A DNA stretch of 64,000 nucleotides from Solirubrobacteraceae bacterium (GTDB taxonomy: Bacteria; Actinomycetota; Thermoleophilia; Solirubrobacterales; Solirubrobacteraceae). The stretch spans positions 1 to 64,000 of the forward strand of contig JANJTP010000032.1 of NCBI GenBank assembly GCA_024711025.1. Reading direction: 5' to 3'. A model generated the notes under the pieces. It had not been told where the DNA came from. It did no database searches and worked only from the letters and a program-made list of their open reading frames with translations. Position 1 is the stretch's first letter. The number at the start of each line of letters is the position of its first letter. The translations under genes were made by a program, and so were the position numbers. Shown in pieces: positions 34,373 through 38,947 of the stretch.

Positions 34373-35740
34373 GTGAGCACGGCGCTCGCCCGTGACCTGG
34401 CGGCGATCGTCGGCGCGGAGCACGTGCTCGAGCCGGCGCCGGCGCCGTACCTGGCCGACGGCACCGAGTCGCGCGGCGTCAGCGGCGCCGCGGCCGCAGT
34501 CGTCCTGCCCGGCTCCGCGGAGGAGGTCGCGCGCGTTGCGAGGTGGTGCTTCGAGCACCGGATCGCGATGGTGCCGCGCGGCGGCGGCACCGGCGCCGCC
34601 GCCGGCGCGGTGCCGGCGGAGGGCCAGGTCGTGGTCGGGCTCGAGCGGCTGACGGCCGTACGGCGGTTCGACCCGCTGCACTGGAGGATCCACGTGGAGG
34701 CGGGTCTTCGCACCGGGGACGTGCATCGCCTGGCGCGCGAGAGCGGCCTCTGCTTCCCACCGGATCCGGGCGCCGCCGAGCAGTCGCAGATCGGCGGGAA
34801 CATCGCGACGAACGCGGGCGGTCCGCACGCGTTCAAGTACGGCGTCACCGGTCGCTGGGTGACCGGCATCGAGGCCGTGGTGTGGCCCGGCGAGCTCGTG
34901 ACGGTCGGCGGGCCGTTGCGCAAGGACGTCGCCGGCTACGACCTCAAGAGCCTGCTGATCGGCTCAGAGGGGACCCTCGGGATCATCACGGCCGCCTGGC
35001 TGCGGCTGATCCCGGCACCCGAAGCGGCGCTTCCGGTGGCCGCGGTCTATCCCGACCACGAGGCCGGCTGCGACGCCATCGAGGCCGTGCTCGGCAGCGG
35101 GCTCCAGCCCGCGGCGCTCGAGCACATCGACGGCGAGGCGCTGGCCGTCAGCGCGGCGGCATTCCCTATAGCGCTCGCCGAGCCCGGGTTCATGGTGATC
35201 GCAGAGGCCGACGGCGACCCCGAGGCGGCCGAGCGCCTGCGCGACGAGCTCGTGTCCGTGCTCGGCGACGGCGCGCTCGCGGTGCACGCCCCGACGGAGC
35301 GTCGGGACGTCGAGGCCCTGTGGCGCTGGCGCGACGGCGTCTCGTACGCGGTGGCCGGCCACCTCGGGCACACGATCGCCGAGGATGTCGGCGTGCCGGT
35401 CGACCGTCTGCGCGACATCGTCGCGCAGACCGCCGAGATCGGCGCCCGCCACGGCGCCCCCGGGTGCACCTGGGGCCATGCGGGCGACGGCAACGTGCAC
35501 GCCCACTTCATGTTCGCGCCGAGCGACGCGGCCGGTCGCGCGGCGGCGCTCGCCGCGGCCGACGAGCTCGTCGCGCTGGCGGTCGAGCTCGGCGGCACGG
35601 TCTCCGGCGAGCACGGCATCGGCACGCTCAAGCGCGAGCACCTGCGCGAGCACACGCCCACGGGGCTGCTGGAGCTCGAGCAGCGCGTCAAGGCGGCGTT
35701 CGACCCGCTCGGCCTGCTCAACCCCGGCAAGGCGATCTGA
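34373..35740 (+). CDS. glcD: FAD-linked oxidase, GlcD/D-lactate dehydrogenase type
   Basis: 455 residues from GTG. Vanillyl-alcohol-oxidase fold: the FAD-binding loop MVPRGGGTGAAAGAVP, the second FAD segment QIGGNIATNAGGPHAFKYGV, and the substrate/metal-domain signatures WGHAGDGNVHAHF and GTVSGEHGIGTLKREHL, ending with GLLNPGKAI. These fit glycolate oxidase subunit GlcD or a bacterial D-2-hydroxyacid dehydrogenase. No glcE or glcF partner is nearby. It is divergent from the opp operon, so the two may share a regulator. A 9-bp hairpin follows the stop. Confidence 0.92.
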   Translation: MSTALARDLAAIVGAEHVLEPAPAPYLADGTESRGVSGAAAAVVLPGSAEEVARVARWCFEHRIAMVPRGGGTGAAAGAVPAEGQVVVGLERLTAVRRFDPLHWRIHVEAGLRTGDVHRLARESGLCFPPDPGAAEQSQIGGNIATNAGGPHAFKYGVTGRWVTGIEAVVWPGELVTVGGPLRKDVAGYDLKSLLIGSEGTLGIITAAWLRLIPAPEAALPVAAVYPDHEAGCDAIEAVLGSGLQPAALEHIDGEALAVSAAAFPIALAEPGFMVIAEADGDPEAAERLRDELVSVLGDGALAVHAPTERRDVEALWRWRDGVSYAVAGHLGHTIAEDVGVPVDRLRDIVAQTAEIGARHGAPGCTWGHAGDGNVHAHFMFAPSDAAGRAAALAAADELVALAVELGGTVSGEHGIGTLKREHLREHTPTGLLELEQRVKAAFDPLGLLNPGKAI

Positions 35741-35744
35741 CGAG

Positions 35745-35774
35745 GAGGCACGCTCGACCGCCCGGGCGTGCCTC
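35745..35774. terminator. hairpin after the FAD-oxidase gene
   Basis: GAGGCACGC (35745-35753) pairs with GCGTGCCTC (35766-35774), a 9-bp stem with a 12-nt loop, 5 nt after the stop codon at 35740. No U-tract follows. Confidence 0.5.
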
Positions 35775-35865: not shown

Positions 35866-36945
35866 ATGACGTATCCGAGTCGGGTCGCGCTGGTCGCGAC
35901 CGCGACGACAGCGGCACTGGCCGCGACGGCCGTGAGCGCCCAGGCTGCGACGAGGACCGTCGACGTCGGCACGCCGTCAGCCAGTCAGAAGGCATTCCAG
36001 AAGGTGGGCGCCGACGTCAACGCCTTCTTCCCGCGCAGCGTGACCGTTCGCGCGGGCGACAGGCTGCGATTCGTGCCGGACGGCTTCCACACGGTGGACC
36101 TGCCGGCCAGGGGCCAGGGCGACCTGCCGCTGATCACGACGAGCGACGCGGTCAGCGGGGCGAACGACGCCGCCGGCCAGCCGTTCTGGTTCAACGGCCA
36201 GGGGCGGCCGGGCTTCAACCCGGCGCTGCTGGCGAGCTCCTGGGGCAAGAAGGTCGCCTACGACGCGACGCAGCGCGTCGACAGCGGCCTGCCGCTCGCC
36301 GGCAATCCCAAGCCCCTGACGGTCACGTTCAAGAAGACCGGCAGGTTCACGTTCTTCTGCGACGTGCACCCGGGGATGAAGGGCACCGTCAAGGTCGTCG
36401 GCCGGCGACGGCACATCCCGTCGAGCAGGCAGAACGCCCGCAGCGTTAAGCGACAGGTCGCGTCGGCTCTCCGCACGGCGAAGAGGCTGACGTCGACGAA
36501 GCCTCCCACCGGGACCGTCAGCATCGGCGCGGCGGGCGGCGGCGGGGTCGAGAGCTTCGCCTTCTACCCCGCTTCGCTCACCGTCGCCCCGGGAGCCACG
36601 GTGACGTTCTCGATGGCCGTCAGGTCTCGTGAAGTGCACACCGCGACGACCGGCCCCGGCAACCCGGAGACCGAGCCGGGCTCGTACCTCGGCAAGCTCG
36701 CCGCATCGCTGACCTCGCCGAGCATCGACCCGGCGGCGATCTACCCGAGCGATGTTCCGGGCGCTCCGGCGTCGCTGACGAAGACGTCGCACGGCAACGG
36801 GTTCTGGAGCTCGGGCGCGCTCGACAACGACAAGGGCTCGCCGCTGCCGGCCGCCAACAGGGTCACGTTCGCGGAGCCGGGCACCTACGAGCTCTACTGC
36901 CTGATTCACCCGTTCATGCACGGGAGGGTCGTCGTGAAGCCGTGA
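35866..36945 (+). CDS. secreted double-cupredoxin protein
   Basis: 359 residues with a signal peptide (AATAVSAQA, cleavage near residue 28). Two plastocyanin-like domains follow. Domain 1 has type 1 copper ligands H75 (FHTV), C165, H168 and M171 (FFCDVHPGMKG); domain 2 has H258 (EVHTA), C345, H348 and M351 (LYCLIHPFMHG). Each C-x2-H-x2-M loop matches a mononuclear blue-copper site. The linker (about 178-215) is Lys/Arg/Thr-rich. The stop overlaps the GTG of the two-domain multicopper oxidase by 4 nt. It probably acts as an extracellular electron carrier or copper donor for that enzyme. Well-placed Shine-Dalgarno sequence and promoter upstream. Confidence 0.88.
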   Translation: MTYPSRVALVATATTAALAATAVSAQAATRTVDVGTPSASQKAFQKVGADVNAFFPRSVTVRAGDRLRFVPDGFHTVDLPARGQGDLPLITTSDAVSGANDAAGQPFWFNGQGRPGFNPALLASSWGKKVAYDATQRVDSGLPLAGNPKPLTVTFKKTGRFTFFCDVHPGMKGTVKVVGRRRHIPSSRQNARSVKRQVASALRTAKRLTSTKPPTGTVSIGAAGGGGVESFAFYPASLTVAPGATVTFSMAVRSREVHTATTGPGNPETEPGSYLGKLAASLTSPSIDPAAIYPSDVPGAPASLTKTSHGNGFWSSGALDNDKGSPLPAANRVTFAEPGTYELYCLIHPFMHGRVVVKP

Positions 36946-37865
36946 ACCGCGTTGCCGCGTTCGCGGTGGCACTCGTGGCGGGGGTGGCGGCGGCCGCCAC
37001 CCCCGCCACGGCACGCACCCGCGAGTACTGGGTGGCCGCGACGCCGTTGGACTGGAACATCGTCCCCAACGGACGCGACGCGATCGAGGGCGCAAGGCAC
37101 CCCCCGAGCGAGACCGTGTTCCCGACGGTCGTCTACCGGCGCTACACGCGCGGCTGGCGAAGGCCGCTGCGCAACACGCCCGCCCGCTCGGGCAACCAGG
37201 ACCTGATCCCCGGTCCGCTGCTGCGCGCTCGCGCAGGCGACCGCATCCTCGTGCACTTCGCCAACCGCGACACGCTCTACCGGCGCCCGCACTCGATGCA
37301 CTTCCACGGCGTGCGGTACCGCCCCAGCTCGGACGGCGCCTACCTGCCCGGCTTCTCGGGCCCCGACGCCGACGTCGCGCCGGGCAGCACGTACACGTAC
37401 CGCCTGCGGGCCGTCGCCGGCTCGGTCGGCGTGTGGCCGTACCACGACCACTCGCCGTCGATGATGGACTCGATCGCCGGGGGCATGTACGGGATGCTCT
37501 CGATCCTCGGACGCGGCGAGCGAGCGCCCGACCGCGAGCTCGTCGTCGTCCTCGCGGCCATGGGCCGCTTCCAGGCGATCGACGGGCGGGCGTTCGTCGG
37601 CAACACGCCGGTCTTCCGCGCTCGGGTCGGCGAGACCGTCCAATGGGACGTCATGGCCATGGGCTCCGAGCACCACACGTTCCACGTGCACGGCCACCGC
37701 TGGCGCGACCGCGACGGGACGCCGCGCGACACGGTGACGGTCGGCCCCGCGGAGAGCTTCCGGATTCGCTGGCACGAGGAGGACCCCGGCACCTGGCTCT
37801 ACCACTGCCACGTCGAGGGCCACATGGCGGCCGGGATGATCGGGCTCTACCGGGTGTCGCGGTGA
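36942..37865 (+). CDS. secreted two-domain multicopper oxidase
   Basis: 307 residues from GTG with an Ala-rich signal peptide (AFAVALVAGVAAAATPATA). The four copper-binding His clusters of a multicopper oxidase are all present: HSMHFHGV (H120, H122), WPYHDHS (H168, H170), HHTFHVHGH (H245, H248, H250) and WLYHCHVEGHMAAGM (H288, C289, H290, H294, M299). One type 1 site therefore lies in domain 2, and the trinuclear site would form between monomers, as in two-domain (small) laccases, which are trimers. Oxidises a substrate such as phenol, metal ion or an electron-carrier protein, with O2 reduced to water. Coupled by GTGA overlaps to the cupredoxin genes on both sides. Confidence 0.9.
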   Translation: MNRVAAFAVALVAGVAAAATPATARTREYWVAATPLDWNIVPNGRDAIEGARHPPSETVFPTVVYRRYTRGWRRPLRNTPARSGNQDLIPGPLLRARAGDRILVHFANRDTLYRRPHSMHFHGVRYRPSSDGAYLPGFSGPDADVAPGSTYTYRLRAVAGSVGVWPYHDHSPSMMDSIAGGMYGMLSILGRGERAPDRELVVVLAAMGRFQAIDGRAFVGNTPVFRARVGETVQWDVMAMGSEHHTFHVHGHRWRDRDGTPRDTVTVGPAESFRIRWHEEDPGTWLYHCHVEGHMAAGMIGLYRVSR

Positions 37866-38797
37866 GCCCCGCCTTCACGGCCTTCGTCGCCGCCGGGGCG
37901 CTGATCGTCGCCGCGGCCCTCTGGTCGTCGCCCTCGGCGCCCGCGGCGCCCGCCTCGATCTCCGGTCGCACCGCAGCGCCGCAGCGGCCTGCGACGGCAA
38001 CGGCAACGGCAACCGTCAGCATCGAGTTCAACGCGTTCAGCCCGGCACACGTCGACGTCCTCGCGGGCGACACCGTGCGCTGGCGGAACGACAGCGTGCG
38101 CACGCACACGGTCACCGCCGTCGACCGCGCGTTCGACTCCGGCCCGATCTCCGGCGACGAGGGCTTCGCGCGTCGCCTGGAGGGTGACGGCGCGGTCGCC
38201 TACTACTGCCGGCTGCACCCGTCGATGCGCGGCGAGATCGACGCGCACACGCTGCTGCTCGACGAGCCGGCCGGGCCCGGCGCGCCGGGCCACGCCTTCC
38301 CGCTGCGCGGGCGTGCGGCGCTTCCCACGGGAACGGAGGTGTCGATCGAGGGCGACGACGGCGGCGGCTACGCGCCGGTGGCGCGGGCGCTCGTCGCGGA
38401 CGACGGCTCGTTCTCGGCGAGCGTGACGCCGACGACCACGACGGAATACCGCGCGGTGCGCGCCGGTCGAGCGAGCCCCGAGGTCCGGCTGGTCGTCGTG
38501 GACCACGCGGTCCTGGCGAGCGCGGAGCGGCTCGGGCGGCGCGTCGTCGTCAGGGCGCGGGTCAGGCCCGCCGCACCCGGCGCGACCGTCGTCCTGCAGC
38601 TGCGCCTGCGCGATCGCTTCGGCTGGTGGCCGGTGCGGCGCGGGCGTCTCGACGGCGCCTCGCGCGCGCGCTTCGCGCTCTCGACCGGCCGGGCGGTGCG
38701 GGCGCGGGTCCGGCTGACGCTCCCCGACGGGGCGACGGCGCTGGCGACGAGCAGTGTCGTCGGGGTCGGCCCGCTCCCGCGAAGGCACGGCGGGTAG
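37862..38797 (+). CDS. secreted or anchored cupredoxin with a C-terminal beta domain
   Basis: 311 residues from GTG. Hydrophobic N-terminus (AFVAAGALIVAAALW), a Thr/Ala linker, then one cupredoxin domain with H82 (THTV), C116, H119 and M122 (YYCRLHPSMRGEI). From residue about 140 to the end, regular beta-strand patterns (GRAALPTGTEVSIEGDDGG, TEYRAVRAGRASPEVRL) suggest one or two Ig/fibronectin-like domains that could bind a surface or partner. The stop of the multicopper oxidase gene overlaps this GTG by 4 nt, so three secreted copper proteins are made from one message. Function of this third gene is unassigned. Confidence 0.82.
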   Translation: MSPAFTAFVAAGALIVAAALWSSPSAPAAPASISGRTAAPQRPATATATATVSIEFNAFSPAHVDVLAGDTVRWRNDSVRTHTVTAVDRAFDSGPISGDEGFARRLEGDGAVAYYCRLHPSMRGEIDAHTLLLDEPAGPGAPGHAFPLRGRAALPTGTEVSIEGDDGGGYAPVARALVADDGSFSASVTPTTTTEYRAVRAGRASPEVRLVVVDHAVLASAERLGRRVVVRARVRPAAPGATVVLQLRLRDRFGWWPVRRGRLDGASRARFALSTGRAVRARVRLTLPDGATALATSSVVGVGPLPRRHGG

Positions 38798-38873: not shown

Positions 38874-38947
38874 TGCCCCGGGCGCGATTCGAACGCGCGA
38901 CCTTCCGCTTAGGAGGCGGACGCTCTATCCGGCTGAGCTACCGGGGC
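38874..38947 (-). tRNA. tRNA-Arg (anticodon CCU)
   Basis: On the minus strand the 74-nt cloverleaf is complete: acceptor GCCCCGG/CCGGGGC with discriminator A, D-arm containing AGCTCAGCCGGATAGAGC, anticodon stem TCCGC/GCGGA with loop CTCCTAA (anticodon CCT, reading AGG), and T-arm GTTCGAATC. The 3' CCA is not encoded. AGG is a rare Arg codon in this GC-rich genome. Confidence 0.97.

What the first reader, a model, noticed from the sequence alone, without database searches (positions are those of the whole stretch)
35866..38797. Three-gene secreted copper operon: double cupredoxin, two-domain multicopper oxidase, cupredoxin with beta domain
Three genes joined by GTGA overlaps encode exported proteins with a complete set of copper ligands: four type 1 sites (two in the first protein, one in the oxidase, one in the third) plus four His clusters in the oxidase for a trinuclear site. 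The two-domain oxidase should trimerise like small laccases. Dedicated electron-carrier genes on both sides of such an enzyme are not a standard laccase arrangement, so this may be an extracellular electron-transfer or copper/metal-oxidation chain. This is my best candidate for an undescribed system.
Basis: partly seen in the sequence, partly recalled or inferred. Interest (0 to 1): 0.75.

Follow-up and report, generated by a model that had tools for sequence, protein, structure and literature searches.

The report
Conserved bacterial copper-oxidase and cupredoxin operon
Soil bacteria of the class Thermoleophilia carry a conserved, apparently undescribed block of genes for a secreted copper oxidase flanked by blue-copper electron carriers, most likely a small electron chain that ends on oxygen outside the cell, but no activity has been measured.

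Summary
Three overlapping genes (GTGA joins) encode an exported double cupredoxin (P1), a two-domain multicopper oxidase (MCO) and a cupredoxin with beta domains (P3). All twelve MCO copper ligands are invariant in 28 relatives. The type 1 ligands of P1 and P3 are invariant or at least 90% conserved. The first gene is variable: P1 in 16 loci, a single cupredoxin in 8, and in one family (5 of 5 genomes) a divergent c-type-heme beta-propeller protein. One redox carrier swapped for another, with no recurrent copper-export neighbour, favours an extracytoplasmic electron-transfer chain ending in O2 over copper detoxification, but does not prove it. The oxidase is more than a small laccase: its N-terminal arm matches only ceruloplasmin and coagulation factor V in the PDB and is absent from Streptomyces small laccase; the tree does not resolve where ceruloplasmin branches. 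Ceruloplasmin's iron-site residues are missing. The substrate is unknown. Verdict: real, conserved, a new variant of a known kind.

The parts
35866..36945 (+). P1: exported double cupredoxin, two type 1 copper sites, basic (pI about 10)
   Evidence: Pfam; ligand conservation; AF2 pLDDT 93; both domains match plastocyanin/amicyanin, Z 10-11; pI
36942..37865 (+). P2: exported two-domain multicopper oxidase (type 1 copper in domain 2, trinuclear His set over both domains) with ceruloplasmin-type N-terminal arm
   Evidence: Pfam; invariant ligands; PDB matches; arm-only profile
37017..37205 (+). N-terminal arm of the oxidase (residues 26-88), shared with ceruloplasmin and factor V, absent from Streptomyces small laccases
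37862..38797 (+). P3: exported cupredoxin (residues 48-130) followed by Ig-like beta domains (about 131-300)
   Evidence: ligand conservation; AF2 pLDDT 88; Foldseek/VIA
36942..36945 (+). GTGA overlap P1/P2, same overlap in 15 of 17 genomes
   Evidence: sequence
37862..37865 (+). GTGA overlap P2/P3
   Evidence: sequence
35745..35774 (.). Inverted repeat between the upstream FAD-linked oxidase gene and P1; possible 5' boundary of the operon
   Evidence: no T-tract terminator or sigma-70 promoter found by scan

Best explanation
A secreted copper electron-transfer module. The two-domain oxidase takes electrons at its type 1 copper and reduces O2 at the trinuclear site. P1 (or the single cupredoxin or c-type-heme propeller protein that replaces it) and P3 are its cognate one-electron partners, carrying electrons from a donor or substrate outside the membrane to the oxidase. 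P3 is perhaps held near the wall or the enzyme by its beta domains. Shown: ligand sets, conserved gene linkage, co-occurrence, swapping of one redox carrier for another. Inferred: export, copper loading, direction of electron flow, oxygen as acceptor, oligomer. Unknown: the primary electron donor.
For: Invariant copper ligands in MCO, P1 domain 2 and P3. P3 adjacent in 33 of 36 loci; P3-type genes in 19 of 21 MCO-A genomes and 0 of 125 others, Fisher p 7e-22. Distances among P1, MCO and P3 correlate (rho 0.87-0.92, n=12), as expected for joint inheritance. The upstream place is filled by P1 (16 loci), a single cupredoxin (8), or, in family f5, a divergent protein with one CxxCH motif and a beta-propeller (5 of 5 genomes with MCO-A; a sixth copy lies near a contig end): the common property is redox, not copper carriage. 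The paralogue MCO-B also lies beside a cupredoxin. Cupredoxins fused to two-domain copper enzymes are known (9cck, 6hbe).
Against: No electron donor gene is shared by all loci. All three proteins are basic, so no charge complementarity is visible. P1 domain 1 has lost ligands in a few relatives. Some loci (L181, L187, L188) have MCO-A with no cupredoxin next to it. Close linkage would also fit copper delivery or storage.
Confidence: 0.5

Rival explanations
1. Copper handling: the oxidase oxidises Cu(I) outside the cell (as CueO/CopA do) and the cupredoxins bind or deliver copper, as the plastocyanin-like CopI does in copper tolerance.
For: CopI is a plastocyanin-like protein in a copper-stress gene cluster (PMC7558416); weak CopI and copper_res_A model hits, far below cut-off; most f1/f3 oxidases hold 9-16 Met.
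Against: Among 285 neighbouring genes only one copper-ATPase-like gene was found by motif, at a locus without cupredoxins; a c-type-heme protein replaces the cupredoxin in one family; no CueO-like Met-rich insert in the alignment.
Confidence: 0.27
2. A laccase-type enzyme that oxidises phenolics or humic matter directly; the cupredoxins only help to load copper or are bystanders.
For: Domains 1 and 2 align with small laccase over 220 residues at 91-108 bits.
Against: Strict linkage to cupredoxin genes with intact type 1 ligands is not needed for a stand-alone laccase.
Confidence: 0.15
3. A ferroxidase like ceruloplasmin, with cupredoxins relaying electrons.
For: Ceruloplasmin-type N-terminal arm; ceruloplasmin and factor V are the top PDB matches by summed score.
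Against: The human ceruloplasmin iron-site residues E935, H940 and D1025 (named from memory) align with A/P, Q and a variable residue in this family (alignment).
Confidence: 0.08

Closest known systems
Small laccase (SLAC, Streptomyces two-domain laccase; PDB 3cg8, 3kw8)
   Same: Two cupredoxin domains, type 1 copper in domain 2, trinuclear His set over both domains
   Different: Lacks the N-terminal arm; the Streptomyces enzymes seen here carry a twin-Arg leader, P2 does not; about 35% identity
Ceruloplasmin / coagulation factor V family
   Same: N-terminal arm of each two-domain unit, arm-only profile hits only this family; alignment over the whole unit
   Different: Six domains in one chain against two; iron-site residues not kept
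Nitrosopumilus maritimus MCO with C-terminal cupredoxin (9cck) and NirK enzymes with fused cupredoxin (6hbe, 2dv6)
   Same: Two-domain copper enzyme paired with a cupredoxin; 9cck is the top Foldseek match of both P1 and P3
   Different: There the cupredoxin is fused; here it is encoded by separate genes, and P2 falls outside the NirK/3gdc-type side of the tree
Plastocyanin / amicyanin / pseudoazurin
   Same: Fold and C-x2-H-x2-M loop (amicyanin spacing) of P1 and P3
   Different: P1 is a tandem of two, each with about 90 residues between first His and Cys; P3 carries extra beta domains

Membership tests
Two-domain multicopper oxidase, type 1 site in domain 2 only | Two cupredoxin domains in one chain | tested here: met
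   Pfam Cu-oxidase_3 and _2 over 88-305
Two-domain multicopper oxidase, type 1 site in domain 2 only | His/Cys/His/Met in domain 2, no Cys in the domain 1 motif (HDH) | tested here: met
   invariant in 28 sequences
Two-domain multicopper oxidase, type 1 site in domain 2 only | Eight trinuclear His | tested here: met
   invariant in 28 sequences
Two-domain multicopper oxidase, type 1 site in domain 2 only | Homotrimer with trinuclear sites between subunits | not testable with these tools
   no complex prediction available
Small laccase (SLAC) | Groups with Streptomyces SLAC in a tree | tested here: inconclusive
   same clan with 100 support, inner order unresolved
Small laccase (SLAC) | Oxidises phenols or ABTS | not testable with these tools
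   needs an enzyme assay
Ceruloplasmin family | Six cupredoxin domains in one chain | tested here: not met
   307 aa, two domains
Ceruloplasmin family | N-terminal arm before each two-domain unit | tested here: met
   arm-only profile: all matches below E 0.5 are ceruloplasmin or factor V type
Ceruloplasmin family | Iron-site residues E935/H940/D1025 | tested here: not met
   alignment; residue numbers from memory
Copper nitrite reductase (NirK) | Type 1 copper in domain 1 | tested here: not met
   domain 1 has HDH, no Cys; separate clan in the tree
Cupredoxin (P1, P3) | Plastocyanin-like fold with His, Cys, His, Met ligands | tested here: met
CopI copper-tolerance cupredoxin | NCBIfam CopI model over cut-off | tested here: not met
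   28.7 bits against cut-off 280 for P1

The most novel reading that the evidence does not exclude
A new extracytoplasmic respiratory or oxidative chain of Thermoleophilia: a c-type-heme propeller or a double cupredoxin feeds a second cupredoxin and then a free-standing two-domain oxidase of ceruloplasmin type, which reduces O2; the oxidase is a living relative of the hypothetical two-domain ancestor from which ceruloplasmin and the coagulation factors arose by triplication.
Probability: 0.25. Interest if true: 0.75.

Novelty: new variant of a known kind. Interest (0 to 1): 0.52.

Why it matters
It gives a compact, cloneable set in which copper-to-copper electron transfer between separate cupredoxins and a two-domain oxidase can be measured, in a widespread but little-studied class of soil bacteria. 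The arm shared with ceruloplasmin and factor V makes the proposed two-domain origin of those proteins (Vasin et al. 2013, PMC3600357) testable on a living enzyme.

Tried and rejected
NirK membership: rejected, no Cys in domain 1. Ceruloplasmin as the nearest relative by tree: not resolved (support 53 and 27), and the ceruloplasmin D5-6 unit was incomplete because only the printed parts of PDB alignments were at hand. Summed ceruloplasmin scores add several domains and overstate the match; per unit small laccase scores about as well, so only the arm test is used. Pfam scan of 84 neighbours showed no family in more than 3 members, but only 25 of 123 families are listed. Copper-export and heme genes among neighbours were sought by motif only. 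Promoter and terminator scans found nothing. Standalone P1 genes gave no shared neighbour. Literature searches found no report of this operon; only open-access PMC papers were searched. Plasmid search gave only distant oxidases.

Full report
What is there. Upstream is a FAD-linked oxidase gene of the same strand (34373-35740), separated by 125 bases with an inverted repeat. Downstream is a tRNA-Arg on the opposite strand (38874-38947). P1 has two Copper-bind stretches, the oxidase has Cu-oxidase_3 and _2, and P3 gives a weak Cupredoxin_1 match.

Copper sites. In 28 oxidases of the same subfamily all four type 1 ligands (H245, C289, H294, M299) and all eight trinuclear His are invariant. In 32 P1 relatives the second site (H258, C345, H348, M351) is invariant and the first (H75, C165, H168, M171) is kept in 90% or more. 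In 21 P3 relatives H82, C116 and H119 are invariant and M122 nearly so. AlphaFold models with these alignments are confident (P1 pLDDT 93; P3 88) and match plastocyanin, amicyanin and the cupredoxin domain of the N. maritimus oxidase 9cck. The C-terminal part of P3 is all beta and Ig-like in Foldseek matches of low coverage. Which residues are ligands follows from the known motifs of these families; no metal was modelled.

Conservation. The genome is a 3.1-Mb assembly of 72 contigs; its relatives are named Solirubrobacterales/Thermoleophilia. The oxidase subfamily of P2 (here MCO-A, 54% identity or more) occurs in 21 of 146 genomes of the family and in several families of the class, but in a sample of 396 genomes of the phylum only inside the class. 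P3-type proteins occur in 19 of those 21 and in none of the other 125. P1 occurs in 32 of 146, 15 of them with MCO-A; elsewhere it stands alone or, in a few genomes, near the paralogous MCO-B. In 36 loci read with their flanks, P3 is next to MCO-A in 33, including five of one genus (g23, Solirubrobacter by matching records) where it is divergent upstream of P1. The 4-base P1/MCO overlap recurs in 15 of 17 genomes. Pairwise distances of the three proteins correlate at 0.87-0.92.

The variable first gene. The place upstream of the oxidase holds P1 in 16 loci and a different single cupredoxin in 8. In family f5 it holds a divergently transcribed exported protein of about 700 aa with a carboxypeptidase-regulatory domain, one conserved heme motif (GCMLCHQ or SCMLCHQ) with a conserved TM downstream that could give the axial Met, and an SGL/Vgb-type beta-propeller. 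In 249 genomes of the class this protein occurs in six, all f5; five have it divergent from MCO-A and the sixth lies 653 bases from a contig end. Swapping a cupredoxin for a c-type cytochrome-like protein points to electron transfer. That the heme is bound is inferred from the motif.

The paralogue. MCO-B (about 42% identity, e.g. contig 40 of the same genome) has a twin-Arg leader in several members and lies beside a NosD-like beta-helix protein and a small cupredoxin. Pairing of such oxidases with cupredoxins is thus recurrent in this group.

The ceruloplasmin link. P2 finds ceruloplasmin and factor V before small laccase in the PDB, partly because several domains add up. A cleaner test used only residues 26-88 (the arm TREYWVAA..DWNIVPN...TVVYRRYT): the profile hits pseutarin-C, ceruloplasmin and factor V (best E 5e-5) and nothing else below E 0.5. 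Streptomyces small laccases lack this insert. A tree places ceruloplasmin, MCO-A, MCO-B and small laccase together (100) apart from NirK and the 3gdc-type oxidases, with the inner order unresolved. Vasin et al. (PMC3600357) postulate a two-domain ancestor triplicated into six-domain proteins; MCO-A and MCO-B are candidates for relatives of it, which is inference. Ceruloplasmin's iron-site residues are not kept.

Mechanism. Best supported: an exported electron-transfer module ending in O2 reduction (0.5). Rivals: copper handling (0.27), direct laccase action (0.15), ferroxidase (0.08). The substrate is not known and no activity can be tested here. The scheme would fall if the cupredoxins bind no type 1 copper or do not reduce the oxidase.

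Novelty. The parts are known folds; the conserved operon, its carrier swap and the armed two-domain oxidase are, within the open literature searched, not described. I rate it a new variant of a known kind.

Noticed in passing
L175:2031-4127, L176:1963-4038, L178:1174-3219, L179:5917-8073, L180:2396-4450: About 700-aa exported protein with carboxypeptidase-regulatory domain, one c-type heme motif and beta-propeller, found only in family f5 and divergent from MCO-A in 5 of 5 f5 genomes that have MCO-A; no NCBIfam match.
   Followed up: partly
L118 (same genome, contig 40):6998-10311; L064:4148-6753: Parallel operon: paralogous oxidase MCO-B, NosD-like right-handed beta-helix protein, small cupredoxin.
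   Followed up: partly
L002 / L119 (same genome, contig 24): A copper nitrite reductase-like (NirK) gene; top PDB matches are NirK (E 3e-64).
   Followed up: no
L134:946-3450: A P1 gene without oxidase lies 63 bases upstream of a gene that looks like cytochrome bd oxidase subunit I (read by eye).
   Followed up: no
L055:4228-5262, L060:5956-7056: MCO-A variants with a His/Asp/Glu-rich C-terminal tail (DDGHDHEH) and no cupredoxin neighbour; one lies next to an RTX-repeat protein.
   Followed up: no
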